Positions 3,733 through 51,430 of a stretch of 64,000 nucleotides of DNA are shown piece after piece. Made by a program: the position numbers and the translations under genes. A model generated the notes under the pieces. It was given only the letters and a program-made list of their open reading frames with translations. It was not told where the DNA came from and ran no database searches. Source of the stretch: a virus; the IMG/VR virus record IMGVR_UViG_3300015371_000028, positions 1-64,000 of that record; one strand, written 5' to 3'. Positions within the stretch are counted from its first letter, which is position 1. The number at the start of each line of letters is the position of its first letter.

Positions 3733-4519
3733 TCAGCGACCGATTCTCGCGCAGCGGAATTTTGGCGCACCGCGCGGAGCGTATAACGGTCCTCCCGGCG
3801 GTGCGGTCTTGCAAGAACGGGCGGAAGCGATCATTCGTGCGTCAAAAACGGGTGAAACAAGCGAACTCGCACCATTGAATGATCTGCGGCGCGAAAATAT
3901 GCTCGTCGAAATCGCGTCGCAGTACCTTCGCGGCGTGCAGATTGTCCATATTGCACAAAATATCGGTGTGGAGCCGATAGATGTCAACAATGAACTCAAT
4001 CTCTTGCGGAAACGATGGCGAGAAGCGTCGCTGGCGGATTTTTCGCAGCGACGGGCGGAAGAAGTCGCGAAAATCGACCATTTAGAATCGGTCTATTGGG
4101 ATGCGTGGCTCGCGTCGCAGAAAACCGAGGTTCAGCAGACTCGACACGAAGGGTTTGATGGGAGCGGCAACAAACGACCCGCGCGTCATGTCACCAAGCA
4201 AACCAGCACGGTCGGCGATGTGCGCTTTCTGGATGGCGTCTGGAAGTGCATCGAGCGGCGGATTAAGCTGTTGGGGTTAGATGCGGAACAGAAGCACATC
4301 GTCGCGGCGACCGTGACCACGGAGACGAACACGCATGACCTCGCGGCTCGCATGGAGCGTTATGCCGGACTCTTCGGTTATTCCATCGTCCCTGTTGGAG
4401 ATGCGGCACCAACTTCTCCTGACGACGGTGCTGACGAATCCGTGGATACCGCACGATCCCCACGAGCGACAGGCGGACTTTCTGACGTTATTGACGCCGA
4501 GTTTCGAGACCGTTCGTGA
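3719..4519 (+). CDS. terS: Terminase small subunit (predicted)
   Basis: Position directly before the large subunit and a helix-turn-helix-like stretch (about residues 65-105) suggest the DNA-recognition subunit of the packaging motor. The start at 3719 overlaps the previous stop by 14 bp; an earlier in-frame ATG would extend into shadow sequence. A long central helix is followed by an acidic, Ser/Asp-rich tail. Sequence similarity is too weak for a direct family call, so the assignment rests mostly on context. Confidence 0.6.
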   Translation: MSGGDQRPILAQRNFGAPRGAYNGPPGGAVLQERAEAIIRASKTGETSELAPLNDLRRENMLVEIASQYLRGVQIVHIAQNIGVEPIDVNNELNLLRKRWREASLADFSQRRAEEVAKIDHLESVYWDAWLASQKTEVQQTRHEGFDGSGNKRPARHVTKQTSTVGDVRFLDGVWKCIERRIKLLGLDAEQKHIVAATVTTETNTHDLAARMERYAGLFGYSIVPVGDAAPTSPDDGADESVDTARSPRATGGLSDVIDAEFRDRS

Positions 4520-5741: not shown

Positions 5742-7439
5742 ATGCCGACCTTTACGGGCTGGTTTTCGCGTATCTCGCGCAGATACGCGCCGTGGTTGTT
5801 TTTCCGCACCTGGGGCGGCGTCGATCAAACCCTGACCACCAACGAACTCGATGTCCGGCTCTATCGCTATCAGCGACTCTGGGATTATTACCAGGGAACC
5901 GCGTTCGATGACATCGAGGCATGGGCGGAATACCGACGCGCGTTCGGTCTCTACCGGCAAATTCGTCTGGTCTGGGATCACGTGCATGCGTTGGTCGAAT
6001 TCTACGCGACCCACGTCTGGTCCGGCACCCTTCCCCTCGACGGCAAGCAACTGCCGGACGGGGTAGTCAACGCGATCCCGCTGGCGGAAGACACCCCCGA
6101 CGATCTGTCCACCGCAATTGGACAGTTATGGCAGTGGTGGAACTTCCAAGAGACGATGACGATGCTCGTCCGGTACACCGCAACGCTCGGTGAGTTTCTA
6201 GTCGAACTGAGCGACGATGTGGAGCGTGGCAAACTCAATCTGAACCTGATCTGGCCGGGATACGTCACCTATATCGACCTCGATGAAGCAGGCAACGTCA
6301 AACACTACGTCCTCGAATACGAAGCATGGGATGAAGACGAGCAGCGGTTCTTCTATTTCCGGCGCGAAGTTGACAAGGAGTCATTCCGCACGTTTCGGAG
6401 CGACACGATCATCTCGCCGGAAGCGTTTCGACAGGTTGCGAGTACGCCGAACCCGTACGGATTTGTGCCTGCGGTCTGGTTCCGTCACATCCGCATCATC
6501 GGCAATCACGGCGAACCTGCGCTCTGGGCAACCCAATCCGAACTCGATGAGGTTAATGGCCTTTTCTCGCACATTATTGATAAATCGCACGTCAGTTTGA
6601 ATGCGCCGATTGTGGTTGCGGGGAATATCGCGCCGACGGTGTTCCAGCGCTCGCTCGACAACATGGTCGCAGCGGCCAAGAACGTCTTTACCGAAGATGC
6701 GGACGAACCGCGTGAAGGCCGACAAGACCTCAATATCCTCGAAGGACCGGCAGGGACCAGCGTCTCCACGATTCAACTCAACGTCACCGATGCGGCCAAG
6801 ATTCTCGACCGGATCATCGCGGGGATTGAACGCAAGGTGCCGGAAGTGACGTTCTACGAGCAGTTGCGCAGTATGACCCAGTTGACCGGACCAGCGGCCT
6901 CGCGCTTGCTCGGTGATGTCGAACACAAGTTGCGCGCGGTGGCGGGAAATTACGACCGCAGCTTGATCAAGTTGTTGCAAATGGGGGTTGCGATTGGCGG
7001 ATTCCGTCAACGCGAAGGGCTCGCAGGTTGGTCCGCGCACAATGATCAGCAGGTCAAGTTTGCGCCGTTCACCATCGAGAGCTATCTCGCAGGCGACCTC
7101 AATTTTGACATCATGCCGCGCGAGTTGGTCCCTATGACGCCGCGCGAGCGGTACGAATTGCTGCAACTGAAGAAACTCGTCTTACCCGACCTGCCCGAAG
7201 AGCAACTGGCGAAGGAAGGCGGCTATTCGGAAGAGGCAATCCGCGCGTTCAATATGCCGACCGCAGCGGAGCAGGCGGAATTGCGCGATCTGAAGAACCA
7301 GATGTTTACCGAAGGTGGACCCGGTGGACCGGGCGCGCCCGCACAGCGGTCCGGTGCGCCTGCTGGTGGACCGCAAGGCGGCAATGCGCCGAACCCGAAC
7401 GGCAAAGAGAGCAGCCCGTTAGCGAGTCAACGGCCATGA
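5742..7439 (+). CDS. Portal protein
   Basis: Forms the dodecameric DNA channel at the capsid vertex. It is the 565-aa gene right after terL with a good TAGGAG site. The N-terminal half has the mixed alpha/beta pattern of SPP1 gp6-type portals. The C-terminal region is helical (about 420-510), followed by a disordered Gly/Pro/Gln-rich tail (from about 530). Its stop overlaps the next start by 4 bp. The assignment rests on position, size and general pattern. Confidence 0.82.
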   Translation: MPTFTGWFSRISRRYAPWLFFRTWGGVDQTLTTNELDVRLYRYQRLWDYYQGTAFDDIEAWAEYRRAFGLYRQIRLVWDHVHALVEFYATHVWSGTLPLDGKQLPDGVVNAIPLAEDTPDDLSTAIGQLWQWWNFQETMTMLVRYTATLGEFLVELSDDVERGKLNLNLIWPGYVTYIDLDEAGNVKHYVLEYEAWDEDEQRFFYFRREVDKESFRTFRSDTIISPEAFRQVASTPNPYGFVPAVWFRHIRIIGNHGEPALWATQSELDEVNGLFSHIIDKSHVSLNAPIVVAGNIAPTVFQRSLDNMVAAAKNVFTEDADEPREGRQDLNILEGPAGTSVSTIQLNVTDAAKILDRIIAGIERKVPEVTFYEQLRSMTQLTGPAASRLLGDVEHKLRAVAGNYDRSLIKLLQMGVAIGGFRQREGLAGWSAHNDQQVKFAPFTIESYLAGDLNFDIMPRELVPMTPRERYELLQLKKLVLPDLPEEQLAKEGGYSEEAIRAFNMPTAAEQAELRDLKNQMFTEGGPGGPGAPAQRSGAPAGGPQGGNAPNPNGKESSPLASQRP

Positions 7440-41028: not shown

Positions 41029-41219
41029 CGCCGCCTCCTATTTTTGCGGGTGATGGGGATGCTCGGCTTCTCGTCATCCTGCGCAGCGACGGCGAGCATG
41101 GCGGCCCGTAACGCGTCGAGCACGCGGAAGAAGCGATCCCAGTCTGCTGCCGTCATATCGGTCGTCGTGGAAATCGTGACCGTGTGCACAGGAGTCACAG
41201 GTATCCGGATGTGCCTCAT
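41025..41219 (-). CDS. Small hypothetical protein, 64 aa
   Basis: Beta segment rich in Thr/Ile at the N-terminus, then a helix, with a basic C-terminal tail R-K-N-R-R-R-R. Overlaps both neighbours by 4 bp. Unrecognised. Confidence 0.55.
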   Translation of the reverse strand: MRHIRIPVTPVHTVTISTTTDMTAADWDRFFRVLDALRAAMLAVAAQDDEKPSIPITRKNRRRR

Positions 41220-41593
41220 TGCTGATCTTTGCGCAGATTCCGACGCATATCAGCGGCGCGTTTTGCGTCGATCATCGCTTTCGCTTGCGGTGCCTCGCCG
41301 TCAAGCATCATCACCCCCGGTTCGGCCTCACTCGCGTCATAGAACGACACCAGGACATACGCGACCTGGCGTTCATCGAGTCCAGTTGTGTCGATGCAGA
41401 CGAGTTTGAGGCCGTCTCCGACCGAGAGTCTTCCCAGGTGTCCTTCGAGCCACGGGTGTTCGGTCAGGTTGAAATGCCGTTCCACGAGTGCCCACCGGCC
41501 CGGTGTGCAACAGTGCATTGATCCTTCCTCGTGCTCGACTTTGGCTTGTTCTGCCGTGATGTCGGTGATGTGATCGTCATGCTGATCTGTCAT
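41216..41593 (-). CDS. Hypothetical protein, 125 aa
   Basis: ATG at 41593 with GAGG 8 bases upstream; a GTG two codons earlier is an alternative. Acidic, His-rich start, two neighbouring Cys (H-C-C), then an alpha/beta domain. It is separated from the next upstream gene by a 450-bp non-coding block holding the pentamer array. Confidence 0.55.
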   Translation of the reverse strand: MTDQHDDHITDITAEQAKVEHEEGSMHCCTPGRWALVERHFNLTEHPWLEGHLGRLSVGDGLKLVCIDTTGLDERQVAYVLVSFYDASEAEPGVMMLDGEAPQAKAMIDAKRAADMRRNLRKDQQ

Positions 41594-41620
41594 TGTCACT
41601 ACCTCGTCGAAGCAGGTTGC

Positions 41621-41945
41621 CCTGCCTTACCGCGCCAAGCCCTACCGGGCCATGCCATGCCTGGCCTCGCCTCGTCTCACCATGCCGAGCCATGCCATAC
41701 CGAACCTAACCTAGCCATGCCCGACCGGGCCTTGCCTCACCGGACCTTGCCTCACCGGACCTTGCCAAGCCATACCTAGCCCTGCCTCACCCGACCTCAC
41801 CAAACCGGGCCTCAGCGAACCGTGCCATACCCGATCACGCCTCACCGCACCGGTCCACACCGCTCCATGCCGTGCACGACCTAGCCATACCTTGTCGGAC
41901 CCTGCCTTGCCATACCGCGCCACGCCAAGTCCGACCCTGCCTCGG
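41621..41945 (-). repeat. GGYNN pentamer array (block A)
   Basis: About 64 consecutive pentamers read C-N-N-R-C / NNRCC on the + strand, i.e. GGYNN on the - strand, the sense strand of the flanking genes. CC falls at positions 0 and 1 modulo 5 throughout with no indel; only a few units deviate in one base. The two N positions vary freely. The block fills the gap between the genes at 41593 and 42050. Open reading frames through it are a by-product of the rarity of stops. Function unknown. Confidence 0.8.
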
Positions 41946-41980
41946 TTGGCTCCCGGCTGCGCTATCACCTGCAACCGGAA

Positions 41981-42045
41981 CCACGCCATGCCTTACCGTA
42001 CCGGACCCTGCCTGACCGAGCCTTGCCCGACCCCGCCACGCCTTG
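41981..42045 (-). repeat. GGYNN pentamer array (block B)
   Basis: 13 further NNRCC units (GGYNN on the - strand) restart after 35 bp of non-repeat DNA (41946-41980). The register is shifted by one base relative to block A. The array stops against the TAA of the gene at 42050-42691. Confidence 0.75.
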
Positions 42046-42049
42046 ATTT

Positions 42050-42691
42050 TTAAGGCTCTACTGCTATGGTGATTGCGGTTACTGAGAACCGACCGAATGT
42101 TGGCCTAAAATCGCACAACCCAACGAGCCGACCGGCTTGGTTAATGAGATGGGTCATCACGGGCAACGGTAGATATTCCGGTGTCGTGATCAACAACTCG
42201 AACGTCAACTGCCAACCCTCACGCATTGCGGGGCGAACGCGGGTGATACCGTTTCGCTGAACGGTCACACGACGACTATCCTCATAATCCCAACTCGCCG
42301 TCTTCGGTTGGAATTGAGCCACCACATCAAGCGCGATCACCCCGGCTTTTGCGAGGTCAAACGCGCTCTTGCGCGGCGATCTTGGGTCTTGCATGAACTT
42401 CGCGCTTTGCTGAATCGACGCTGCGAAGTTTTGCCCAGGAACACCGAGATAACCATCGGCATCCCGGTAGACATAACTTTCCAAGTCATCGGATTTCTTC
42501 GCCTTCGACCCTTTGGCTGCTGCTGCTTTCCCGGCCACTGATGCGACGTTCCAGGCGTGAAACAGCAACGGACTCACCCCGATGATACTGGCGGTGAGTC
42601 GGTACGGTTGTCCTTGAACAATGCTATCTGAGCCACCGTTCGTGACTTGTTGCTCATCAACTGCGAGTTTCTGATCTGCTGCTACAGGCAT
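42050..42691 (-). CDS. Hypothetical protein flanked by pentamer arrays
   Basis: 213 aa, AAAGGAA before the ATG. A Lys/Ala-rich linker (50-65) is followed by a compact domain: V-P-G-Q-N-F-A-A-S-I (~85), P-R-S-P-R-K-S-A-F-D (~105), and near the C-terminus G-L-C-D-F-R-P-T-F-G-R-F. The last segment recurs in phage proteins of unknown role. Both ends of the gene abut GGYNN arrays, so the gene could be linked to them functionally or as a transferred unit. Confidence 0.6.
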   Translation of the reverse strand: MPVAADQKLAVDEQQVTNGGSDSIVQGQPYRLTASIIGVSPLLFHAWNVASVAGKAAAAKGSKAKKSDDLESYVYRDADGYLGVPGQNFAASIQQSAKFMQDPRSPRKSAFDLAKAGVIALDVVAQFQPKTASWDYEDSRRVTVQRNGITRVRPAMREGWQLTFELLITTPEYLPLPVMTHLINQAGRLVGLCDFRPTFGRFSVTAITIAVEP

Positions 42692-42725
42692 TCCCCGTTC
42701 CTTTCATAACCTCGCCACAAAAAAA

Positions 42726-42905
42726 CCACGCCATGCCCTGTCTTACCGTGCCGGACCGCGCCGGACCGAACCGCGCCAGACCGTGCCATGCCTCGCCTCG
42801 CCTTGCCGGGCTTGACCTTGGCTCACCGGGCCTCGCCTCACCAGACCATGCCTCGCCTGACCTAGCCTGGGCATACCAAGCCTCGCCCTGTTATGTCATG
42901 CCTTT
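42726..42905 (-). repeat. GGYNN pentamer array (block C)
   Basis: 36 pentamers (NNRCC on +, GGYNN on -), again without an indel. It lies in the 5' untranslated region of the 42050-42691 gene and runs slightly into the 3' end of 42896-43156. Leftward transcripts from 43772-43800 carry it as GGYNN RNA. Confidence 0.8.
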
Positions 42906-43156
42906 CCACCTCCTCGCTTAATCGCGTCGGCAATTCGTGATAAGAAGCGATCTGGATATTTATCTGGTGCCCCTAAGAGGTCGTGATAATGAATTAGCTC
43001 AGAAATAAAGTCCTCACGGTCATCGGGATCGAGCCGTGCCCAATAGCCGATCAGAATCTCGCGCAACTCGTGGTTCGTCATATTGCGCAATCGGCAACGT
43101 ACGAGATTGTTAGAACGTGTGTAACTTAACTCAACCGCAACTTCTGGCTTGTCCAT
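42896..43156 (-). CDS. Small hypothetical protein, 86 aa
   Basis: Mostly helical with His/Asp. Base composition is lower in GC than its neighbours. Its stop lies in the edge of array block C. Not recognised. Confidence 0.55.
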   Translation of the reverse strand: MDKPEVAVELSYTRSNNLVRCRLRNMTNHELREILIGYWARLDPDDREDFISELIHYHDLLGAPDKYPDRFLSRIADAIKRGGGKA

Positions 43157-43162
43157 TGCCCC

Positions 43163-43573
43163 TTACCACTCCAATTGGAATTCCCGGTGCTGGATCGCGG
43201 CTCCCGCAATCACCAGGGAGAAGAATTCCCGGACACCGATGGTGATGGTGCCGTCGAGGTCATCGCCTTTGACTTCCCCGTTTAAGGTCAGGTTATTGCC
43301 CTCAACATCAACGTCTGCGGCCCAATTGCTGCCCGCGACGAAGATGTGATCGTTCTCGATGTTCAGCATCACGGTGAACGCACCAACGCGCCAGGAAATG
43401 TGATGCGGTTCAATCACGCGGGCGTTCATCTCCGCGTCCGTGGTTCCGTACACGATCTGGGCTGCTTTCAGTAACCGTGCTGCTGCATCAGCGGCGTGCG
43501 TTAGTCCCGGTGTCAGTTGACTCGACACAATGTTGGTCCCCCAAGGACGAGCTACCGGTGGCGTCATGGTCAT
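43163..43573 (-). CDS. Hypothetical protein, 136 aa, first gene of leftward operon
   Basis: The start at 43573 is chosen because the frame from 43684 runs through the folded leader RNA. No clear ribosome-binding site precedes it. The sequence looks beta-rich (residues 45-110) with D-V-D-V-E-G and D-D-L-D-G-T turns. First product of the leftward operon, so perhaps an early regulatory or structural-modifying protein; unknown. Confidence 0.5.
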   Translation of the reverse strand: MTMTPPVARPWGTNIVSSQLTPGLTHAADAAARLLKAAQIVYGTTDAEMNARVIEPHHISWRVGAFTVMLNIENDHIFVAGSNWAADVDVEGNNLTLNGEVKGDDLDGTITIGVREFFSLVIAGAAIQHREFQLEW

Positions 43574-43615
43574 GGAGAGCAGATTTCCACAAGCCAGTAT
43601 GCCCCCTGAACGAAG

Positions 43616-43765
43616 GAATCGAGCGGCGCTGTATCGGTTTCCTGACAGCGCACACTCGATTCGGAGCGCCGAGCACGGGACCAACGTGCGTCTCCCGGCT
43701 GGAGGACCGGGCGTCTAGGGTACTGGACCGTCGGCGCATGAGACCGGGGTTTGACCCCCGACCTT
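43616..43765 (-). promoter_or_regulatory. Structured leader RNA of leftward operon
   Basis: The mRNA from the promoter at 43772-43800 would begin near 43765. It can form a CGGGG hairpin (43745-43760), then a closed multi-branch unit (TCGGCGC at 43731-43737 with GCGCCGA at 43666-43672 enclosing two 5-bp hairpins), then a long hairpin with 8- and 7-bp stems (43616-43662). No gene fills this 190-nt leader. It could be a control element for the leftward operon. Confidence 0.6.
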
Positions 43766-43771
43766 GACCCC

Positions 43772-43800
43772 ATTGTACGTACGCCCACGATCAGTGTCAA
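43772..43800 (-). promoter_or_regulatory. Main leftward promoter
   Basis: On the - strand: TTGACA (43800-43795), 17-bp spacer, TACAAT (43777-43772). Its -35 faces the -35 of the rightward promoter 48 bp away, forming a divergent switch. Confidence 0.7.
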
Positions 43801-43848
43801 GCACTAAATTTGAGCGCCAGCATGTACTAAAAGCACGGATGCACTGAC

Positions 43849-43877
43849 TTGACATACGCGTCTCCGCGTGATACCAT
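43849..43877 (+). promoter_or_regulatory. Main rightward promoter
   Basis: TTGACA (43849-43854), 17-bp spacer, TACCAT (43872-43877) with an extended TG. The spacer contains ACGCG-TCTC-CGCGT, a small inverted repeat. It starts the rightward operon from 44018. Confidence 0.7.
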
Positions 43878-43894
43878 TGCACCAGGTGGTGCAA
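43877..43894 (+). promoter_or_regulatory. Palindromic operator at transcription start
   Basis: TTGCACCA-GG-TGGTGCAA is a perfect inverted repeat covering the expected start point of the rightward promoter. A dimeric repressor bound here would block this promoter. No candidate repressor is encoded beside it. Confidence 0.6.
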
Positions 43895-43911
43895 GGTTGA
43901 ACCAGAGAAAA

Positions 43912-43942
43912 GGCCGGTGGGGGCGAAGCCACCGGTCCTTTC
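43912..43942 (+). terminator. Attenuator-like hairpin in rightward leader
   Basis: 9-bp GC stem (GGCCGGTGG 43912-43920 with CCACCGGTC near 43929-43937) and an 8-base loop, followed by TTT. It lies before the first gene, so it may attenuate transcription. Confidence 0.5.
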
Positions 43943-44017
43943 CAACGGGGAATTACCGAACGTCCCACCGAGGCACATGGAGCAGGACACGCTGAGTCTA
44001 GCAACGGGAGCGACGCC

Positions 44018-44281
44018 ATGCAACATCCTGAACCCGCACGCGACGGCAAGATGATTCAATTCACTTCGTATCCCCGTGATGAGTTTCCGCCGCCGCGACC
44101 ACGCTGTCGCGTCTGTCATCGCCGGTTGCGGTCGCAGCCGTGGAGCACGCTGATGATCGGCCCGATCTGCGCGCGCAAGCAACCGGCGTTACTGGCGATG
44201 ATCCGCAACGAATTCGCGCAGGCAGACAAAGCACCAGAGTTTGCGAAGCTGTTGGAGAATACCGGGTTAGCGGTGTCATGA
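44018..44281 (+). CDS. DUF6011-like zinc-finger protein, 87 aa
   Basis: GGGAG precedes the ATG. Residues 31-55 carry C-R-V-C-H-R-x-L and then G-P-I-C-A-R-K, the DUF6011-type zinc finger found in many phage proteins, with the Cys pairs separated by about 17 residues. The C-terminal half is helical. Likely nucleic-acid binding; first gene of the rightward operon. Confidence 0.65.
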   Translation: MQHPEPARDGKMIQFTSYPRDEFPPPRPRCRVCHRRLRSQPWSTLMIGPICARKQPALLAMIRNEFAQADKAPEFAKLLENTGLAVS

Positions 44282-44532
44282 GTTCGGCGCTGCGCTCGCT
44301 CTGGTCGAGCTACATTCCCAATCGGTACGGCGCGTTCGGGACGGTGTTGCGCATACCGCTGACACCGGGGCAAACAATGGAGGAAGGAATTGACGTATGG
44401 ATGAACCGGTTGAACGCGAACGATTCAATGCCTCAGACCACCTCACTGACCTTCGGGGTCGGGCCTACCTCGAAGCTGCAACGGGGCAGTTATCCCTACA
44501 CAACGAAACCGGCGCTGCTCGATAAGTGCTAA
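44278..44532 (+). CDS. Hypothetical protein, 84 aa
   Basis: ATG in 4-bp overlap with the previous stop. The first 40 residues look protein-like; after about residue 41 another frame (44397-44525) seems more convincing. It may therefore be truncated, frameshifted or overlapping. Function unknown. Confidence 0.4.
   Translation: MSSALRSLWSSYIPNRYGAFGTVLRIPLTPGQTMEEGIDVWMNRLNANDSMPQTTSLTFGVGPTSKLQRGSYPYTTKPALLDKC
44397..44525 (+). CDS. Overlapping 42-aa frame resembling SSAP N-terminus
   Basis: ATG with AGGAAGG 9 bases upstream, in another frame inside 44278-44532. Its sequence V-E-R-E-R-F-x-x-x-D-H-L-T-D-L-R-G-R-A-Y-L-E closely parallels the start of the next protein (V-E-R-V-R-F...D-H-I-T-D-I-R-G-A-A-Y-I-E). 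It looks like a duplicated, shortened N-terminus. Whether it is translated is open. Confidence 0.5.
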   Translation: MDEPVERERFNASDHLTDLRGRAYLEAATGQLSLHNETGAAR

Positions 44533-44546
44533 GAAAGGACAATTCG

Positions 44547-45230
44547 GTGGCTGAAGTTGAACGAGTACGATTTCGACCAGAGGACCACATCACCGACATT
44601 CGCGGCGCTGCCTATATCGAAGTGAAGTGGCGTTTAGTGTGGTGTCACGACTACGCGGAAGCTCATGGCTATCGTTTAGAACTGGATACGCAACACATCG
44701 CGATGGACACCACTTTCGCCGCGTTCAAAGCGACAGCGCGGTTGCTCGATGAGAACGGGATGGTCGTCAAGGCCGCATCCGGGTACGGCACCGAGCAATC
44801 GCAAGACTTCGGAGATTTCATCGAAAAGGCCGAGACGAAAGCGCTCGGTCGCGCCCTGGCCGCGTGCGGCTTTGGCACTCAGTTCTGCGAGGACTATGAC
44901 TTCGGGTCCGAGCACGGGTACGTCGTCGATAGCCCAGTCGAGCAGCGCTCTGTGCGCACCAGCAGCGGCGGCAGCAATCGCAATGCGGTCGTGACCAACA
45001 TCAACGGCGGCAGCCGGGGCACGCCGAACGATCTTCTCACACCACGTCAGGCGAGCTACATCGAATCCCTCTTGAACGAATACGGCCAACGCGGGAATGA
45101 CGTGAGCGAACACCTGCGCATCTTCGGCACCCTCTCCCGTGCCACCGCGTCACAGTGGGTCGATCAGATGACCAAAGAACGGGTGCTGCCACTCCTCCCA
45201 AAAGCACCGAGCGCGGCGAACCCGGCTTAG
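44547..45230 (+). CDS. Single-strand annealing protein (ERF/Rad52-like)
   Basis: GTG 44547 has AAAGGA upstream. Residues 14-35 read D-H-I-T-D-I-R-G-A-A-Y-I-E-V-K-W-R-L-V-W; residues 90-110 have F-I-E-K-A-E-T-K-A-L-G-R-A-L-A, the key helix of the ERF-like annealing family, followed by G-F-G-T-Q-F. Such proteins anneal ssDNA for phage recombination and genome repair. The C-terminal 60 residues are less conserved and may bind a partner. Confidence 0.65.
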   Translation: MAEVERVRFRPEDHITDIRGAAYIEVKWRLVWCHDYAEAHGYRLELDTQHIAMDTTFAAFKATARLLDENGMVVKAASGYGTEQSQDFGDFIEKAETKALGRALAACGFGTQFCEDYDFGSEHGYVVDSPVEQRSVRTSSGGSNRNAVVTNINGGSRGTPNDLLTPRQASYIESLLNEYGQRGNDVSEHLRIFGTLSRATASQWVDQMTKERVLPLLPKAPSAANPA

Positions 45231-45250
45231 ACCCCGATCTTCGGTCGCGC

Positions 45251-45541
45251 TTGGAAACCGATAACGATAAAAGCCGGGTGGTGTGGGGGAACATCGTCCG
45301 TCATGTGGGCGATGATAATCTAACGTGGGTGAATCTGATGGACATCGCGACCGGCGCGGCGCTCGTTGCGTCCGATCCGTTGGAGCATGCCTTCAAGTTC
45401 GCGATTCTCGCGGAGTGTGCGCCGACCGCACAGTTCGTGGACATGATCTACACCAACGCGCGCAATTGTGGCGCAATGACGCCGGACATCGAAGAAATTG
45501 TCGAACGGCGATTAACGAGGGAGTTTAGTCGGACCACCTGA
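45251..45541 (+). CDS. Hypothetical protein, 96 aa
   Basis: The frame is open from 45155, but the first part overlaps the annealing gene and reads as shadow. A TTG at 45251 or an internal ATG near 45340 are possible starts. Helical, with Cys near residue 60 and an Arg-rich end. Unrecognised. Confidence 0.4.
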   Translation: METDNDKSRVVWGNIVRHVGDDNLTWVNLMDIATGAALVASDPLEHAFKFAILAECAPTAQFVDMIYTNARNCGAMTPDIEEIVERRLTREFSRTT

Positions 45542-45551
45542 GAGGGCACGC

Positions 45552-45839
45552 ATGGTCCCGAACATGCAGGTGCCGCTGTCGAAGAAGCAGAAACTCGTGC
45601 TCTACTGCTTGACTGACAACGCGGCACGCAATGGCCCCGGTAGCGAACGGGAGGTTGTGATGCGACGCAAGCAGATCATGGATGCCACCGGGTTGTCCGA
45701 GCGTCACGTCCCCTATGTGTTACGGAAGCTGGAGTCATTGGGCTACATCACGACGATTCCGCAACGTCGTCCGGACGGCAGCGCTGATGCCAATTGTTAC
45801 GTCGTCCACGATCTTGACGAGCGGAGAGCCGAAATCTAA
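45552..45839 (+). CDS. Winged-helix DNA-binding protein, 95 aa
   Basis: Residues 10-75 form a winged helix: a first helix (K-Q-K-L-V-L-Y-C-L), a recognition segment (G-L-S-E-R-H-V-P-Y-V-L-R-K-L) and a wing (Y-I-T-T-I-P). Probably a regulator or replication accessory protein, just upstream of the initiator gene. Confidence 0.6.
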   Translation: MVPNMQVPLSKKQKLVLYCLTDNAARNGPGSEREVVMRRKQIMDATGLSERHVPYVLRKLESLGYITTIPQRRPDGSADANCYVVHDLDERRAEI

Positions 45840-45934
45840 GCTGGGAGCGGGCGCTGTGGGACAACGGTCGCCCGGAGACAACCCTCTCCCTCCTGGCGAT
45901 GATTCTTGCGCAACAGAGTCATCGTCGGCTCAAC

Positions 45935-45975
45935 AATGCGCCGGGCCTCTGCAACGACCCGGCGCATTTCCCTTC
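45935..45975 (+). terminator. Terminator before initiator gene
   Basis: Perfect 11-bp stem (AATGCGCCGGG 45935-45945 with CCCGGCGCATT 45958-45968) and a 12-base loop, followed by TTCCCTT. Ends the 44018-45839 unit. Confidence 0.65.
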
Positions 45976-46045
45976 CCTTGACTCCCGGTTGGCAGCCGAG
46001 GGAGTGGCCACATCATAGCAAAGCCGGATTGATCTACGAGTTGCC

Positions 46046-46074
46046 TTGAACACTTGTCGGGTGTAGGCTACCTA
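46046..46074 (+). promoter_or_regulatory. Possible promoter of initiator gene
   Basis: TTGAAC (46046-46051), 17-bp spacer, TACCTA (46069-46074). Weaker than other promoters here but well placed. Confidence 0.4.
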
Positions 46075-46082
46075 AAAGCGAA

Positions 46083-46205
46083 ACCCCAGACCGAAGTCTG
46101 GGGTCGCACGGCTCTTAAATTGTCGGACTCCAAAGGGGGCTACCAAAAGAGTCCTTAGCTGGGGGCTTGGGAGCACCCGTTCAGATGAGGGGCTGGGGAG
46201 CACCC
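46083..46205 (+). promoter_or_regulatory. Folded leader of initiator gene
   Basis: The leader has a 9-bp hairpin (46083-46104, loop CGAA), a GGACTC/GAGTCC stem (46125-46154), and two near-identical copies of GGGGCTTGGGAGCACCC (46161-46178 and 46189-46205). The repeats could be protein sites. Together with 46206-46321 this ~240-bp stretch holds no gene and probably controls initiator expression. Confidence 0.5.
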
Positions 46206-46321
46206 TATCTGGTTTTCACACTACCACGTGCAAAGTCGTTTCGTCAAGTCCCTTTGTTGTTGCTCCCAGGCATAAGGGACACCGGGATTCGTAGCAAGCT
46301 GCACAAAAAGGGGGGCACATC

Positions 46322-47176
46322 GTGATCGTGACGCAGAAGACCGTCATCGAGATTCTGTCAGACAACTCCGTTCCTCTGACCGCCCGCGTGGTCTACGTCA
46401 AGCTCGTTGACTACTGCACGAGAGAGCGCGGCTGCTTCCCCGGCGAACAACGCATCGCAGATGATCTGAGCCTTTCGCTTCGGACGGTACGTCGTGCGTT
46501 GCGGGAATTGATCGACATGGCGTGGATTAAATGCACGCACCGTGGTGCAACAAAGACCAACGTCTACGCCTTGAATCGGTACGTCGATGGTCTGGAAGTG
46601 ACCGGTCAAAATGACCCATCACATGCACGGCAAGCGGTCAAAATGACCGGTCATGATGGGTCAAAACGACCGGTCATGACCGGTCAAAATGACCGCCAAA
46701 CTAAATTAGAAGAACGTAATAAAGAAGAACTACCTACCGGTACTATCGTACCGGTAGCACCGCCCCCCGAAATCCCCAAACCAAAATCGAAGGCAAGTGA
46801 GAAACCTGCTCCCGCGAATTACGTGCTGATGTCAAAGTTCCATCAATTGCGCGGAACAGAAATTCCGGCGCGCGACAGCACATCGTTCGGAACCGAAATC
46901 ACGCAAGCAAGTCGTCTCGTCAAAGACGGTGTTACCGCAGATGATCTTCCGGCACTGATCGAGCATGCGTCAACTTGGGCGAAGCGGGGAATCACGTTGG
47001 GCGTACTGGTATCCGATGTTGCTCAGTGGCGTGATAGCACGAACGGAAAGGTGCAGCCCACTAAGAGCAAGAATGAACGCGTGTTCGATGAGTTTTATCG
47101 CATGATGGGGAAGCCCCGCGACGGTGCTGCAACCGTGAGCGATGTCTTTGAGGCGCAAGGACGAGTGGTGTCATGA
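46322..47176 (+). CDS. Replication initiator-like protein with internal origin
   Basis: GTG start with GGGGGG upstream. Residues 1-90 form a winged-helix domain of the helix_turn_helix_36 type: P-G-E-Q-R-I-A-D-D-L-S-L-S-L-R-T-V-R-R-A-L then a wing. Residues 95-155 are a linker whose codons are the iterons at 46604-46694. Residues 155-284 are helical, a likely partner-binding domain. The arrangement matches lambda O and SPP1 G38P, which melt the origin and recruit a helicase loader. The next gene looks like such a loader. Confidence 0.65.
   Translation: MIVTQKTVIEILSDNSVPLTARVVYVKLVDYCTRERGCFPGEQRIADDLSLSLRTVRRALRELIDMAWIKCTHRGATKTNVYALNRYVDGLEVTGQNDPSHARQAVKMTGHDGSKRPVMTGQNDRQTKLEERNKEELPTGTIVPVAPPPEIPKPKSKASEKPAPANYVLMSKFHQLRGTEIPARDSTSFGTEITQASRLVKDGVTADDLPALIEHASTWAKRGITLGVLVSDVAQWRDSTNGKVQPTKSKNERVFDEFYRMMGKPRDGAATVSDVFEAQGRVVS
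46604..46757 (+). other. Predicted replication origin (iterons, AT-rich, palindrome)
   Basis: Inside the initiator gene. Four copies of the inverted-repeat core GGTCAAAATGACC (46604, 46636, 46659 with C for T, 46682); the last three lie at a 23-bp spacing with GGTCATGA between. A short AT-rich stretch (46697-46733) and a perfect 10-bp palindrome (CTACCGGTAC 46734-46743 with GTACCGGTAG 46748-46757) follow. This is the lambda-type origin layout. Confidence 0.65.
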
Positions 47177-47724
47177 GTGATCGGCTTACTGAGGCGTTGG
47201 AGATTATGTTTGAGGTGATGCCGTCTTCGCAGGAAGCGACGCCCCGCATGATTGCGACCTACGCAGATCGCCTCAGTAATCTCCCTGAAGATGCGGTGCG
47301 CGAGGCGATTGCCCTCTTGATTGATACCAAGACGTTCCGCCCGACGATTGCGGAGATTCGCTCAACCGTGGCAGAAACCAGTTTATTCGTGCGGAACAAG
47401 AAGATCGGGGAAGAGGCATGGCAGGAGGTAGTTCAGCAAGCGAGTGCGGTGGGCTTCACCGAAAACCGGCCAGAGTTGCGCGTCTTTTCGGGTGGTCGGT
47501 TCCACGACCCACCTAGGCCTATGTTCAGTGACCCGATGATTGAGAAAGCGGCCTACCTCGTCGGGTGGCGTCGTATCTGTCAGCACGACGTGGAGAAAGA
47601 AGGGCCGTTTATCAGAAAGGAGTTTTTGCGTATTTACGGAGAGCTTTTCTCGGCAGAAGTCCAGGCGTTGCAGAGTGGCGCAATAGCATTGTCGGAGGGC
47701 GAGGACAATGAGCGAGCCGTTTGA
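47173..47724 (+). CDS. Helicase-loader-like protein (G39P type)
   Basis: 183 aa, 4-bp overlap with the initiator. Residues 24-62 resemble the N-terminal helices of SPP1 G39P: Y-A-D-R-L-S-N-L-P-E-D-A-V-R-E-A-I, then F-R-P-T-I-A-E-I-R. These proteins hand the replicative helicase to the origin complex. No phage helicase gene is nearby, so it may load the host enzyme. Confidence 0.55.
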   Translation: MSDRLTEALEIMFEVMPSSQEATPRMIATYADRLSNLPEDAVREAIALLIDTKTFRPTIAEIRSTVAETSLFVRNKKIGEEAWQEVVQQASAVGFTENRPELRVFSGGRFHDPPRPMFSDPMIEKAAYLVGWRRICQHDVEKEGPFIRKEFLRIYGELFSAEVQALQSGAIALSEGEDNERAV

Positions 47725-48223
47725 ATGGACCAGCAACCGGCCACCGACGCCGGAAGAGCAAGTGGCGATTCAGGATGTGTACGACCTCGCGGTGGGATTT
47801 ATCAACGACGACACATCACTCGAAGAAATCCGTGCTGCTTCCACCGGAAAGCAACGCGCGGTGGCGATGAAGTTTACGAAGCACCCCCAGCACCCGATGA
47901 AACCGGCATTGCGGATGATGATTGACGCGTTGGTTGAGGACCAAGACGGCATCATCACGACTGAAAAGCATCTCACGTTCACGACTGCCGATCTTGCCGA
48001 ATATCAGGCGATTCTGGTGACGAAGAACGGGCGGCGTGTGCTTCAGTTTCCGTTCAAACATCCGTGGGAGAAGAAGCCAGACAAGGATGGGATGGGCGGT
48101 GTTCGTGGCCGTCCACTCTATCGCGACAAAGACGCGATTTACAACCGTGAAACACAGGCAGCACCGTACGAACCGGAGTGGTGGGAAGAAGAAAAGCCGC
48201 CGAATGACAACGAGTTGACATAA
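47708..48223 (+). CDS. Hypothetical protein, 171 aa
   Basis: Overlaps the loader by 17 bp. Acidic and aromatic C-terminus; a central Lys/Arg patch. Position after the replication genes suggests DNA metabolism. No family recognised. Confidence 0.55.
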   Translation: MSEPFEWTSNRPPTPEEQVAIQDVYDLAVGFINDDTSLEEIRAASTGKQRAVAMKFTKHPQHPMKPALRMMIDALVEDQDGIITTEKHLTFTTADLAEYQAILVTKNGRRVLQFPFKHPWEKKPDKDGMGGVRGRPLYRDKDAIYNRETQAAPYEPEWWEEEKPPNDNELT

Positions 48224-48289
48224 CAATCTAGCACGGGTGTAATGGGACCGGGAACCACCTGGTCCCATTCGCACGAAAGGGGGCAGCGC

Positions 48290-48685
48290 ATGAAGGAGAA
48301 GCGCCGCCGATCCGACATCCGCGCGAACGCGGTTTCGTGTCAGGGCAAGACGGCCTTCGTCACGTTCGGGGAGGCCGAACGGAACCGGAAGCATCTGCGC
48401 TATGACATCGGAATCAGGGAGCCGATGACGACCTATCGCTGTGAGGCATGTCATGCGTATCACATCGGTCGGATCGCGGAACAGCAGCAACGCAAGCGGC
48501 GGATGTTCCGTCGCTGGAAACGATGTCTGATGATGGAGGCACAGGACAGTGAGCGCGGTACGGGCGGACGAGCCAAAAGCACGACACGATTTCGCCGCTA
48601 TGTGGGGCGAAAAGAGCAAGAAGTTGGACGAGAATATCGCGCAATTCGTCGAATCAACCGGCTTGAAGTCGCGCCGGGATGCTGA
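48290..48685 (+). CDS. Small zinc-finger-like protein, 131 aa
   Basis: AAAGGGGG precedes ATG 48290; an earlier start at 48242 is unlikely. Residues 42-62 have Y-R-C-E-A-C-H-A-Y-H-I-G, a zinc-binding pattern of small phage proteins. The last ~45 residues overlap the next gene and are Arg-rich; the true end of the folded part is near residue 85. Confidence 0.55.
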   Translation: MKEKRRRSDIRANAVSCQGKTAFVTFGEAERNRKHLRYDIGIREPMTTYRCEACHAYHIGRIAEQQQRKRRMFRRWKRCLMMEAQDSERGTGGRAKSTTRFRRYVGRKEQEVGREYRAIRRINRLEVAPGC

Positions 48686-48887
48686 TTGCATGGACCCCCC
48701 GATTGCCAACGGCCAGCGCATGATCGTGATCGCCGGGGACGGAACGCGCAGGCCCGATCTGGTCGGGATTACCGGTAGCGTCGAGAAGAAGACCATCCAA
48801 CGGCAGACCTACTATCTCTTCATGCTCGACAACGGCGAAGTCGTGACCTCAGACGATGTGTGGTGGCGGCGTGAGTCGGGTGTGTGA
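48549..48887 (+). CDS. Hypothetical protein, 112 aa
   Basis: GTG 48549 has GGAGG 9 bases upstream; a shorter form could start at ATG 48690 (65 aa). The C-terminal half is a small beta barrel-like segment (I-T-G-S-V-E-K-K, then Y-L-F-M-L-D). It overlaps the previous gene by 137 bp, so one of the two ends or starts is probably misplaced. Confidence 0.45.
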   Translation: MSAVRADEPKARHDFAAMWGEKSKKLDENIAQFVESTGLKSRRDADCMDPPIANGQRMIVIAGDGTRRPDLVGITGSVEKKTIQRQTYYLFMLDNGEVVTSDDVWWRRESGV

Positions 48888-49204
48888 TGACGGAAAAGCA
48901 TCTACCGCTGGCAGAAGAACTGTTGCTGGTTTGCCCAGTGTGCGGAGACACCTACCAGCATCACACGACCGTCACGATCTTCGACCGGTTGGGCGGCGAG
49001 GACGGTCAGAGTATGGCCATGAACTCGGCGCACGGAACGTGGGTGGCGATAGCGAACGCAGACAACCCATCGTCGCGCCGCGATGCGGTTCGGGTCCATT
49101 TCTGGGGCGAGTGCGGGCACACCTGGAGTCTCGATTTCGTCCAGCACAAAGGGCAGACGTTCGTCACCGCGAACCTGATGATCGGCGCTGAGACATCGAC
49201 TTGA
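48887..49204 (+). CDS. Zinc-ribbon protein, 105 aa
   Basis: Residues 15-25 carry L-V-C-P-V-C-G-D-T-Y-Q-H-H and later C-G-H-T-W-S, a Cys4-type zinc ribbon. Starts in overlap with the previous stop. The same L-x-C-P-x-C-G...H-H pattern is common in phage proteins of unknown function. Confidence 0.6.
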   Translation: MTEKHLPLAEELLLVCPVCGDTYQHHTTVTIFDRLGGEDGQSMAMNSAHGTWVAIANADNPSSRRDAVRVHFWGECGHTWSLDFVQHKGQTFVTANLMIGAETST

Positions 49205-49229
49205 CATCGCGTCGGTTATTTGATAAGAT
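49201..49229 (+). promoter_or_regulatory. Promoter before HTH gene
   Basis: TTGACA (49201-49206), 17-bp spacer, TAAGAT (49224-49229) with extended TG. Overlaps the preceding stop codon. Confidence 0.6.
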
Positions 49230-49261
49230 ACACGTATACGAAAGTTAGGACAGGAGGAGCA

Positions 49262-49570
49262 ATGGCAGATCAGGAAACTTCGAGCGCGTTGACCGAGCAA
49301 GAACGCGCGTACATCGCATCGTTGCCGCCGATCACGTACGTCTCCGCGAACGATCTGACGCCGGAATTGCAGGCGCGGCGCGCCGAGGACATGCGCAATA
49401 TGTACTACGATCCGGAGAACCCGATGTCGATGATTGACATCGGCATCGTCTACGGATTGACCCGCGAACGGGTGCGCCAGATATTCAAGCAATTCGACAT
49501 TCCGGTCAGACCTCGGCCTGAGGCACGGGCGATTGCCCAGCGGCGGCGGGAAAAGATCGCGGCAGGATGA
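49262..49570 (+). CDS. Sigma region-4-like HTH protein, 102 aa
   Basis: GGAGGAG before ATG 49262. Residues 55-85 read S-M-I-D-I-G-I-V-Y-G-L-T-R-E-R-V-R-Q-I, the helix-turn-helix of sigma region 4. There is no region 2, so it is not a full sigma factor; perhaps a regulator or a co-factor of host polymerase. Confidence 0.6.
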   Translation: MADQETSSALTEQERAYIASLPPITYVSANDLTPELQARRAEDMRNMYYDPENPMSMIDIGIVYGLTRERVRQIFKQFDIPVRPRPEARAIAQRRREKIAAG

Positions 49571-49728
49571 GTTGGTCTGACTTCTTCTGGGGGCTGGTCA
49601 TCGTAATCGCGTTGACGGTCTGGATGCGCGGTGTCAGTAACCACAACCACCGCTGGCATTTCTACGAGTACCTGTTCAGCGGGTGCTTGTTGACCGTGCT
49701 GCTGGTCGCCGCACGGCAGTTTTTTTAA
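49567..49728 (+). CDS. Two-span membrane protein, 53 aa
   Basis: ATG in 4-bp overlap with the previous stop. Hydrophobic spans at residues 5-20 and 36-53 with a His/Asn-rich turn. Not recognised. Confidence 0.5.
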   Translation: MSWSDFFWGLVIVIALTVWMRGVSNHNHRWHFYEYLFSGCLLTVLLVAARQFF

Positions 49729-49742
49729 CGGGGAGAACCAAC

Positions 49743-50246
49743 ATGCGCTTCACGGCGATGTACATCGCAGACATCTCGCGACTGGGCGAGCAGTCGGTTG
49801 ATGAGCTATACGACTCGATGGAGGGCAAAGAACGCGCCGGGAAAGGGATCGTCGATGAGTGGATTGACGAGCACTTCAACAAGACCGTGCGCTGCATGGT
49901 CTGTGGCACCCGTGGTCGCGTCAACCCGAATGACGACAACGATATGGTCATCACGATCAGCAGCGAAGGTGGCGTCATCATCGCTTGTGATGAGTGCTTG
50001 GGGATGTTCTGTTACACCGCGATCCTCGGCATGCGCGACAAGCAATCGGGCGAAGTCGTCGGCAGGATCACGACCGATCTGGTCAAGCGCACGATCACCG
50101 GGGCCGAAGAAAAGCTGGCGAATTCGATGGGGGGGTTGATCGCGTTGCAGCAAGCCGCCAATCTGTACCAGCGAACGACGCGGGAGGACGATAGCCCGGA
50201 AGCGAAAATGAAATGGTTCGCGGAAAAGCTCAACTATCAGGCGTAG
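49743..50246 (+). CDS. Zinc-ribbon-like protein, 167 aa
   Basis: GGGGAG before ATG 49743. Residues 52-82 contain C-M-V-C-G and C-D-E-C-L, a Cys4 site separated by an acidic loop. The rest is helical. May bind DNA or be part of a larger complex; unknown. Confidence 0.55.
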   Translation: MRFTAMYIADISRLGEQSVDELYDSMEGKERAGKGIVDEWIDEHFNKTVRCMVCGTRGRVNPNDDNDMVITISSEGGVIIACDECLGMFCYTAILGMRDKQSGEVVGRITTDLVKRTITGAEEKLANSMGGLIALQQAANLYQRTTREDDSPEAKMKWFAEKLNYQA

Positions 50247-50316
50247 GTTGCGGCGGAATACGCAGGGACATGGGCGCAGAATGCGGCGAGATTGTGGGCG
50301 CACATTGGAACGGGAC

Positions 50317-50505
50317 ATGATGGTCGTCAGAACAGCCGATCATGAATGGCAACTGTTGCGCAATGCACTGGACGAGCGCGATGCGGCGAATGCGCGCGCC
50401 GACCATGCGGAACGCCGACTCCACCATGCGAACCGTCTCTTGACGATTGCGTGTTGTGGTCTCGTCGGCTTGTGGTTGGTGTTCATGCTGGTGCTGCTGT
50501 CGTGA
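50317..50505 (+). CDS. Tail-anchored membrane protein, 62 aa
   Basis: Start at 50317 (or 50320) with GGAACGGGA nearby. Residues 10-40 are a coiled coil rich in Arg/Ala/His; residues 42-61 are one hydrophobic span. It could be a spanin-like or membrane-tether protein, but it is not near the lysis genes. Confidence 0.45.
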   Translation: MMVVRTADHEWQLLRNALDERDAANARADHAERRLHHANRLLTIACCGLVGLWLVFMLVLLS

Positions 50506-50517
50506 AAGGGCGAGTCG

Positions 50518-50994
50518 ATGAAAGTGACCAAGAAGCGCACCATCGGCGGGGTGATCGAAGTAGACAAATTTGACGATGCGGAGCCGGTGCGTCATGCGAC
50601 GGTGGATTGGACCGGGTTGACGGACGCGCCACCGGTTGAAGGCGCTCTGACCACCACGTTTCCGGTCGAAGATGAGGTCAAAGCCGCCGCGACGCTCGTC
50701 CGCGATTGGCTCAAACGCTATGAGCAATGGAACGCGGACGCGATTCCGGTCATGCTGCGTCACGCGCATGTGCCTGACGAGACCAAGCACGAAATCTTTG
50801 ACGCCTACCGCAACTCCATCGGGATATTAGGGTCACTCCAAATGGCGATGGACTTGATTATCAATGGCATGTCGGTCGAGGCTTTAGTCGATCCTGTCTT
50901 GGCGCGGGCGATGCGGTCGGCAGCGCGCACCGCCGACACCCCCGCCGACGAGGACTTCGAGGCCGACCTCTCCCGGCCTGACGACGGCGAGTAA
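50518..50994 (+). CDS. Hypothetical protein, 158 aa
   Basis: AAAGGG precedes the ATG. Helical middle (V-R-D-W-L-K-R-Y-E) and an acidic end. It is the last gene before the 51026-51340 array. Not recognised. Confidence 0.55.
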   Translation: MKVTKKRTIGGVIEVDKFDDAEPVRHATVDWTGLTDAPPVEGALTTTFPVEDEVKAAATLVRDWLKRYEQWNADAIPVMLRHAHVPDETKHEIFDAYRNSIGILGSLQMAMDLIINGMSVEALVDPVLARAMRSAARTADTPADEDFEADLSRPDDGE

Positions 50995-51025
50995 CCCGGC
51001 ATCCGTTTGAGCGTTCACATTCGCC

Positions 51026-51340
51026 ACGGTGTGCCGAGGCATGGCTCGGCAAGGCGGGACATGGCGGGGTTTGGCAGGGCATGGTATGGCCGGGCGTGCT
51101 CCGGTCAGGCGAGGCATGGTTTGGCCCGGTTTGGCGCGCTCCGGTTAGGCGAGTCGTGGTACGGCGAGGCAAGGTCAGGCGAGGCAAGGTCAGGCGAGGC
51201 GCGGCGCGGTCAGGTCTGGTGAGGCAAGGCGGGACGTGGTGCGGGAAGGCGAGGTCCGCTGAGTTGGGGCTTGGTTAGGCACGGCAAGGCTCGGCTCGGT
51301 AGTGCGTGGTAGGGCGGGGTATGACATGGCATGGTGAGGC
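51026..51340 (+). repeat. GGYNN pentamer array (block D)
   Basis: About 62 pentamers of the form NN-GG-Y on the + strand, with GG at positions 3 and 4 modulo 5 throughout and no indel. It lies between 50994 and the promoter at 51402, upstream of the SNF2 helicase gene. The sense (GG) strand matches the direction of transcription. The remaining DNA of the gap (51341-51401) has ACGTA repeats and the palindrome CGCCGTACGGCG (51372-51383). Confidence 0.82.
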
Positions 51341-51401
51341 CGAGCCGATCCCGTATGGGAACGTAACGTAACGCCGTACGGCGAGCAATATCGCCCTCGC
51401 G

Positions 51402-51430
51402 TTGACATTCTGATGTTATGAGAGTATAAT
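51402..51430 (+). promoter_or_regulatory. Strong promoter before SNF2 helicase
   Basis: Consensus TTGACA (51402-51407), 17-bp spacer and TATAAT (51425-51430). It lies just downstream of array block D. Confidence 0.75.

What the first reader, a model, noticed from the sequence alone, without database searches (positions are those of the whole stretch)
41621..51340. Strict 5-nt GGYNN arrays, orientation-matched to transcription
Four non-coding blocks (41621-41945, 41981-42045, 42726-42905, 51026-51340) read GGYNN every five bases. The long blocks hold register over about 64, 36 and 62 units without an indel, while the two N positions look random. GG is always on the sense strand of the surrounding genes, although transcription direction differs between 42 kb and 51 kb. 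Random N with fixed phase argues against simple slippage and for selection on spacing: half a DNA turn, a 5-nt protein footprint on RNA or ssDNA, or two-tetrad G-quadruplexes (G2N3 repeated) and R-loops. I do not recognise this element.
Basis: seen in the sequence. Interest (0 to 1): 0.88.

Follow-up and report, generated by a model that had tools for sequence, protein, structure and literature searches.

The report
VIPR guide-RNA arrays in a phage
The odd GGYNN stripes are guide-RNA arrays of VIPR, an RNA-guided DNA-recognition system related to CRISPR and first described in a 2026 preprint; the stripes flank this virus's vipr gene, and one guide reads out as a conserved piece of the vipr gene itself, which suggests it is aimed at rival viruses that carry the same system.

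Summary
Four blocks keep GGY every 5 nt without an indel (65, 13, 33 and 61 units; 84-100% GGY), on the sense strand of neighbouring genes. They are not G-quadruplex or R-loop elements. The ORF between the 42-kb blocks (42050-42691, minus strand) is a Vipr: a profile of it and 61 array-linked homologues hits PDB 36pp 'SUSP1 Vipr protein' (E=6e-49), and its AlphaFold model matches CRISPR Cas7/Csm3. Such proteins sit a median 37 nt from GGY/GGA-NN arrays in 89 of 168 loci, always on the same strand. VIPR was reported in 2026 (PMC13142463): GGY is held by the protein, NN pairs with DNA under a 1-nt skip rule. Two tests support that rule here: NN usage tracks codon positions 1-2, and the 13-unit array decodes to ...VGLCDFRPT, the conserved glycine-loop motif of Vipr, with skip bases at wobble positions. 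The phage's own vipr mismatches this guide (TTG, AGG codons), so the likely target is a rival VIPR. New: the member itself, a clade with unusually long arrays (25-141 units), a distant array at 51 kb, and the apparent self-avoiding anti-VIPR guide. No RNA data were available.

The parts
42050..42691 (-). vipr gene (213 aa; RAMP/Cas7-like fold; phrog_4652)
   Evidence: Profile of 62 array-linked proteins hits PDB 36pp_D 'SUSP1 Vipr protein' E=6.4e-49; AlphaFold pLDDT 91.2; Foldseek best hits type VII Cas7 and Csm3, prob 1.00
42723..42887 (-). vrRNA array, 33 GGYNN units, directly upstream of vipr
   Evidence: 29/33 units GGY, lag-5 z 7.2
41978..42042 (-). vrRNA array, 13 perfect GGYNN units, directly downstream of vipr; decodes (1-nt skip, antisense) to [DE]T[IM][FL]VGLCDFRPT = conserved Vipr motif
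41951..41980 (-). hairpin directly 3' of the 13-unit array, candidate vrRNA tail
   Evidence: MFE -20 kcal/mol, z -2.5 against shuffles
41617..41941 (-). vrRNA array, 65 in-phase GGYNN units
   Evidence: 57/65 units GGY, lag-5 z 8.3
41606..41630 (-). small hairpin at the 3' end of the 65-unit array, candidate tail
   Evidence: MFE -11.8 kcal/mol, z -1.6, weak
51038..51342 (+). distant array, 61 in-phase GGYNN units, 8.3 kb from vipr, opposite strand
   Evidence: 51/61 units GGY, lag-5 z 7.3
42098..42124 (-). own vipr codons for VGLCDFRPT (GTT GGG TTG TGC GAT TTT AGG CCA ACA): near-match to the 13-unit guide, mismatched at Leu TTG and Arg AGG
   Evidence: codon usage
51402..51430 (+). perfect sigma-70-type promoter match between the 51-kb array and the helicase gene (separates the array from the helicase leader)
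   Evidence: 12/12 consensus

Best explanation
The blocks are vrRNA arrays of a phage-encoded VIPR (Viral Interference Programmable Repeat) system. They are transcribed with the neighbouring genes. Vipr subunits, a minimal RAMP/Cas7-like protein encoded at 42050-42691, line up along the RNA, one per pentamer: the GGY of each unit is held by the protein and the NN is presented for pairing. The RNP pairs NN with double-stranded DNA, reading two bases and skipping one (xNNxNN...), and represses transcription at the site. The skip base falls on codon wobble positions, so synonymous third-base changes do not give escape. The 13-unit guide next to vipr reads out as VGLCDFRPT, the conserved Vipr glycine-loop motif, so it probably silences the vipr gene of competing VIPR phages; the phage's own copy mismatches it at six-fold-degenerate codons (TTG, AGG). 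Shown here: Vipr identity, array linkage, phase selection, decoding of one guide. Taken from the preprint on SUSP1 and P. fulva: RNP formation, the 1-nt skip rule, repression. Inferred: one subunit per pentamer, expression and function in this phage, targets of the three longer arrays, and the self-avoidance reading.
For: Neighbour clustering: a ~200-aa family in 89 of 168 array loci, median 37 nt from the array, 90/90 on the array's strand. hmmsearch to PDB SUSP1 Vipr, E=6.4e-49; the Felix-type 195-aa homologue is near-identical to it. AlphaFold pLDDT 91.2 and Foldseek to Cas7/Csm3. Vipr and vrRNA as described in PMC13142463. Phase kept while NN turn over in Ounavirinae loci. NN frequencies correlate with sense codon positions 1-2 (r=0.51) and not with (2,3) or (3,1) (r=-0.02, -0.12). 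The 13-unit array decodes to [DE]T[IM][FL]VGLCDFRPT. It is the only one of 691 arrays to match the Vipr motif at 7/7; 200 shuffles of all arrays gave none. Its 8-unit core matches 10 IMG/VR places exactly and 4 of them lie in vipr genes. The skip base is at codon position 3.
Against: No transcript data. The long arrays (33-65 units) exceed the 9-16 repeats described for SUSP1-type vrRNAs, and no conserved tail common to all four was shown. No vap gene was recognised by profiles of the vap-like families. No target with the 9-unit core exists in IMG/VR, and no targets were found for the other three arrays. The 51-kb array is far from vipr. Self-avoidance rests on two or three codons, and vipr uses TTG often anyway (7 of 16 Leu codons).
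Confidence: 0.94

Rival explanations
1. Two-tetrad G-quadruplex or R-loop elements: G2N3 repeats fold in RNA or the displaced strand and pause polymerase or prime replication.
For: GG every 5 nt on the non-template strand fits G2N3; third base almost never G.
Against: Quadruplexes tolerate loop lengths of 1-7 and any third base. Here lengths are locked modulo 5, the third base is phage-specific Y or A, single Gs are often lost without loss of phase, and a guide-binding protein gene sits beside the arrays.
Confidence: 0.02
2. Coincidental or degenerate simple-sequence (slippage) pentamer arrays without function.
For: In-register duplications of several units occur inside arrays, and cellular genomes do hold many true pentamer SSRs.
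Against: True SSRs have identical units (98 of 120 genome hits), viral GGY arrays do not (4 of 120), and the reversed control YGGNN gives 2 diverse arrays of 100. Phase kept with full NN turnover.
Confidence: 0.01
3. VIPR locus, but the long arrays (65, 33, 61 units) are decayed or used otherwise, e.g. as a scaffold for an extended Vipr filament or as a recombination reservoir of guides, while only the 13-unit array is a working guide.
For: Only the 13-unit array is perfect and decodes to a recognisable target; the long ones hold 4-10 imperfect units each and gave no target.
Against: Long arrays are the rule in this Vipr clade (10 of 11 members with 25-141 units, support 0.999), so simple decay is unlikely. 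The preprint mentions staggered arrays with overlapping vrRNAs.
Confidence: 0.2
4. The 13-unit guide is autoregulatory: it targets the phage's own vipr gene rather than a rival's.
For: The decoded peptide VGLCDFRPT is present in the own Vipr.
Against: Own gene matches only 7 of 13 units; TTG and AGG break two units of the core that CTN/CGN genes match; AGG is 1.4% of Arg codons here.
Confidence: 0.12

Closest known systems
VIPR systems, type II clade of Escherichia phage SUSP1 (PMC13142463; PDB 36pp)
   Same: Vipr protein of ~200 aa, same-strand GGY/NN arrays flanking it, hypervariable NN, phage-borne, 1-nt skip decoding consistent, a guide aimed at VIPR
   Different: Window Vipr is ~25% identical to the SUSP1-type protein (L262); arrays of 65/33/61 units besides one of 13 (published: 9-16); no recognised vap; one array 8.3 kb away on the other strand; no demonstrated common tail or pseudoknot
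Phage DSL-LC04 Vipr locus (OR003939.1, gene annotated 'helix-turn-helix transcriptional regulator')
   Same: Vipr 53% identical, 21- and 12-unit arrays upstream on the same strand
   Different: Shorter arrays; recorded host Gammaproteobacteria
Class 1 CRISPR RAMPs (Cas7/Csm3; type VII Cas7)
   Same: RAMP fold match, prob 1.00; protein lining a guide RNA with periodic base disruption
   Different: No palindromic repeats or spacers, 5-nt instead of 6-nt periodicity, noncontiguous code, phage-encoded
TRAP (trp RNA-binding attenuation protein) sites, from general knowledge
   Same: Triplet plus 2-nt spacer periodicity on RNA
   Different: 11 (G/U)AG triplets, ring protein, no guide function; no homology found

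Membership tests
VIPR | Vipr protein: ancestral RAMP with RRM core and glycine loop | tested here: met
   PDB 36pp_D E=6.4e-49; AF2 pLDDT 91.2; Foldseek Cas7/Csm3; conserved G187, G191, G200
VIPR | Arrays of alternating GGY/NN beside vipr on the same strand | tested here: met
   Arrays at 42723-42887, 41978-42042, 41617-41941 flank 42050-42691, all minus strand
VIPR | GGY conserved, NN hypervariable with phase preserved | tested here: met
VIPR | 1-nt skip rule with skip base at codon wobble | tested here: met
   By sequence only: NN follows codon positions 1-2; 13-unit array decodes to the Vipr motif, skip base at codon position 3
VIPR | 9-16 repeats per vrRNA followed by an invariable structured 3' tail | tested here: inconclusive
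   One array of 13 followed by a hairpin (z -2.5); the others are 33-65 units with no common tail shown
VIPR | vap accessory gene next to vipr | tested here: inconclusive
   Profiles of four vap-like neighbour families find nothing significant in the window; neighbouring ORFs 41216-41599 and 43163-43684 have no family match
VIPR | Carried by a virus | tested here: met
   IMG/VR record of 66.9 kb; terminase, major head protein, tape measure
VIPR | vrRNA expressed, bound by Vipr, RNP binds and represses target DNA | not testable with these tools
   No RNA or biochemical data
CRISPR-Cas class 1 | Constant repeats with unique spacers and cas operon | tested here: not met
   No Pfam/NCBIfam/PADLOC match for the window Vipr; arrays lack constant repeats longer than GGY
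Simple pentanucleotide SSR | Near-identical tandem units | tested here: not met
   NN entropy 1.7-1.95 bits, lag identity about 0.25

The most novel reading that the evidence does not exclude
A distinct VIPR lineage, defined by a Vipr clade with 0.999 support, uses long uninterrupted guide tracts of 25-141 pentamers (including one unlinked to vipr) instead of discrete 9-16-unit vrRNAs. In it, a short guide aimed at the glycine-loop codons of rival vipr genes is paired with recoding of the own vipr gene (TTG, AGG), so that first-codon-position differences separate self from rival. A second, unlinked case (L273 guide reading PVVIPATK, matching L311 vipr, with own vipr PVVIPSTK) suggests that VIPR-against-VIPR guides with self-avoidance recur.
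Probability: 0.35. Interest if true: 0.78.

Novelty: new member of a known kind. Interest (0 to 1): 0.6.

Why it matters
VIPR is proposed as a forerunner of CRISPR, and its code was inferred from two clades. This locus gives independent, sequence-only support for the 1-nt skip and wobble rule. It offers a natural guide aimed at the system's own family, and a concrete, testable model of self/non-self discrimination by codon recoding. It also shows that arrays can be far longer than the published guides, which raises the question of how they are processed.

Tried and rejected
Rejected: G-quadruplex or R-loop function (phase locked modulo 5, phage-specific third base); slippage SSRs (controls); coding repeats (stops in all frames of the 65- and 61-unit arrays); Rfam families (none); RNA polymerase pausing arrays, ribosome standby sites and TRAP-like sponges were considered and dropped once the adjacent protein was identified. 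Led nowhere: megablast of the window to phages; pentanucleotide literature searches; the search for related loci with the window Vipr; exact 9-unit target search in IMG/VR; PHROG and tblastn searches with peptides decoded from the long arrays; skip-rule comparison over 4 Mb of held DNA, where skip 1 gave only slightly more 8-unit hits than other skips (24 against 15-18). In one search the skip-3 hits in vipr genes are an artefact of array sequence overlapping called ORF ends. The first tree call failed at display and was redone.
Full report
OBSERVATION. Four GGYNN blocks are real: 41617-41941 (-), 41978-42042 (-), 42723-42887 (-) and 51038-51342 (+) with 65, 13, 33 and 61 in-phase units. In-phase GGY fractions are 0.84-1.00 against 0.14-0.25 in shuffles, lag-5 identity is 0.54-0.58, and nothing else in the window comes close. 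22 of 172 units are imperfect, but phase is never lost. The two N columns have 1.7-1.95 bits of entropy and no autocorrelation. GG lies on the strand of the flanking genes in both orientations.

SPREAD. The reversed control YGGNN gave 100 loci with 2 diverse arrays. GGRNN gave 105 analysed loci, of which 18 are diverse and essentially all of those are GGANN, a second consensus. The diverse arrays are therefore mainly viral.

COMPARATIVE EVIDENCE FOR PHASE. blastn with the window array found Felixounaviruses. In 14 Ounavirinae loci a hairpin with GTCTTNNAAGAGGGT, an array, and a fixed 3' segment recur. 27 arrays of 38-102 nt show 26 identical lengths modulo 5 for their anchor type, while NN and unit number differ between phages with well-conserved flanks. 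Indels of anything but whole units are not tolerated.

THE PROTEIN. Clustering ORFs near 238 arrays in 168 loci gave one dominant family: 89 loci, about 200 aa, median 37 nt from an array, 90 of 90 on the array's strand. The window member is 42050-42691 (-), between the 42-kb arrays. No Pfam, NCBIfam or PADLOC family matches it, although single homologues give weak Csm3/Cmr6/Cas6 hits. A profile of 62 members matches PDB 36pp chain D, 'SUSP1 Vipr protein', E=6.4e-49. The Felix-type 195-aa protein is nearly identical to that chain. The AlphaFold model of the window protein (pLDDT 91.2) matches type VII Cas7 and Csm3.

WHAT IS KNOWN. PMC13142463 (bioRxiv 2026, Doudna group) describes VIPR: a RAMP-fold Vipr plus vrRNAs of alternating GGY/NN, 9-16 repeats and a structured tail, vap accessory genes, seven types, dsDNA recognition by NN with a 1-nt skip whose skipped base falls on codon wobble positions, repression of competing phages and satellites, and some guides aimed at other VIPR systems. 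The window locus is a member of this kind.

INDEPENDENT TESTS OF THE CODE. (a) In 5191 GGY units from 146 loci, NN frequencies correlate with codon positions 1-2 (r=0.51) and not with 2-3 or 3-1 (-0.02, -0.12), as expected if guides copy coding DNA with a wobble skip. (b) Read as antisense codons NNx, the 13-unit array gives [DE]-T-[IM]-[FL]-V-G-L-C-D-F-R-P-T. VGLCDFRPT is the conserved glycine-loop motif of Vipr, present in the window's own protein (AGRLVGLCDFRPTFGRF). Among 691 arrays it is the only 7/7 match to the family motif; shuffling gave none in 200 rounds. Eight units match the vipr gene of L093 exactly, with the skip base at codon position 3 (0.3% of shuffles reach one hit). In IMG/VR the 8-unit core has 10 exact matches, four inside vipr genes. 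(c) The own gene does not match: Leu is TTG where the guide needs CTN, and Arg is AGG where it needs CGN (AGG is 1.4% of Arg codons; TTG 20% of Leu codons). (d) A second case: the L273 guide reads PVVIPATK antisense, matching the L311 vipr exactly over 8 units (two of them outside perfect GGY units), while L273's own Vipr reads PVVIPSTK. These two cases suggest anti-VIPR guides with self-avoidance. Numbers are small: over all arrays, skip-1 8-unit hits in vipr genes are 3 (two of them the same guide in two near-identical loci) against a shuffled mean of 0.27.

WHAT DIFFERS. The window Vipr sits in an 11-member clade (support 0.999) in which 10 members have longest arrays of 25-141 units; most other Viprs here have 11-24. 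The preprint mentions staggered arrays with overlapping vrRNAs, which may be the same thing, but its supplement could not be read. The 51-kb array is 8.3 kb from vipr, follows ORF 50518-50994 and precedes a perfect consensus promoter of the helicase gene, so it would have to act in trans. No vap was recognised. The 13-unit array is followed by a stable hairpin, a candidate tail. The nearest named relative is phage DSL-LC04, whose Vipr (53% identical) is annotated as a helix-turn-helix regulator and has 21- and 12-unit arrays.

MECHANISM, STEP BY STEP. Shown here: gene, arrays, phase selection, code consistency, one decoded target family. Shown by others for SUSP1 and P. fulva: RNP, skip rule, repression. 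Inferred: transcription and processing in this phage, rival vipr as target, self-avoidance, function of the long and distant arrays.

VERDICT. A confirmed and striking observation, explained by a system published months ago; a new member, possibly of an under-described long-array lineage, with a useful natural anti-VIPR guide.

Noticed in passing
L391, L395, L419, L422, L446 and others (IMG/VR): A GGANN version of the arrays exists (18 diverse loci), often with blocks split by constant linkers (e.g. GGAACGGCTGTAATGG in L391); on a Vipr tree the GGA type needs 7 changes against 10.5 in shuffles, so it may have arisen several times.
   Followed up: partly
L262:689-1129, L394:645-1256, L036:479-1057 and similar: 150-200 aa proteins (phrog_5926 and relatives, winged-helix-like by eye) and a second family (25 loci, phrog_15946) lie next to arrays; the first is probably Vap1 of SUSP1-type VIPR.
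   Followed up: partly
L273 array at 7914 and L311 vipr 3429-4067: The L273 guide decodes to PVVIPATK, an exact 8-unit match to L311 vipr, while L273's own Vipr has PVVIPSTK.
   Followed up: yes
L477 (phage DSL-LC04, OR003939.1) 5968-6585: A Vipr gene annotated 'helix-turn-helix transcriptional regulator', with 21- and 12-unit arrays upstream.
   Followed up: yes
L478 (Pseudomonas phage vB_Pae_LESphi2): Three arrays of 11-17 units upstream of a Vipr homologue, near cI/cro-type regulators.
   Followed up: partly
L249-L264 (Felixounavirus and relatives): Arrays downstream of the DNA ligase gene, including in Felix O1 (11 units); a term search of the 2010 genome paper (PMC3185647) found no mention of them. 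A sigma-70-like promoter lies just upstream of module A.
   Followed up: yes
L211 (Candidimonas nitroreducens, 167-kb contig): Vipr with GGY arrays in a cellular genome contig, perhaps a prophage.
   Followed up: no
window 2025-2666: ParB-like protein shortly before the terminase large subunit (4335-5729).
   Followed up: no
L095 4600-5047: Seven arrays of 10-13 units separated by a repeated GGTAAGGCTAATGGGT linker, in the window's Vipr clade but with short units instead of one long tract.
   Followed up: no
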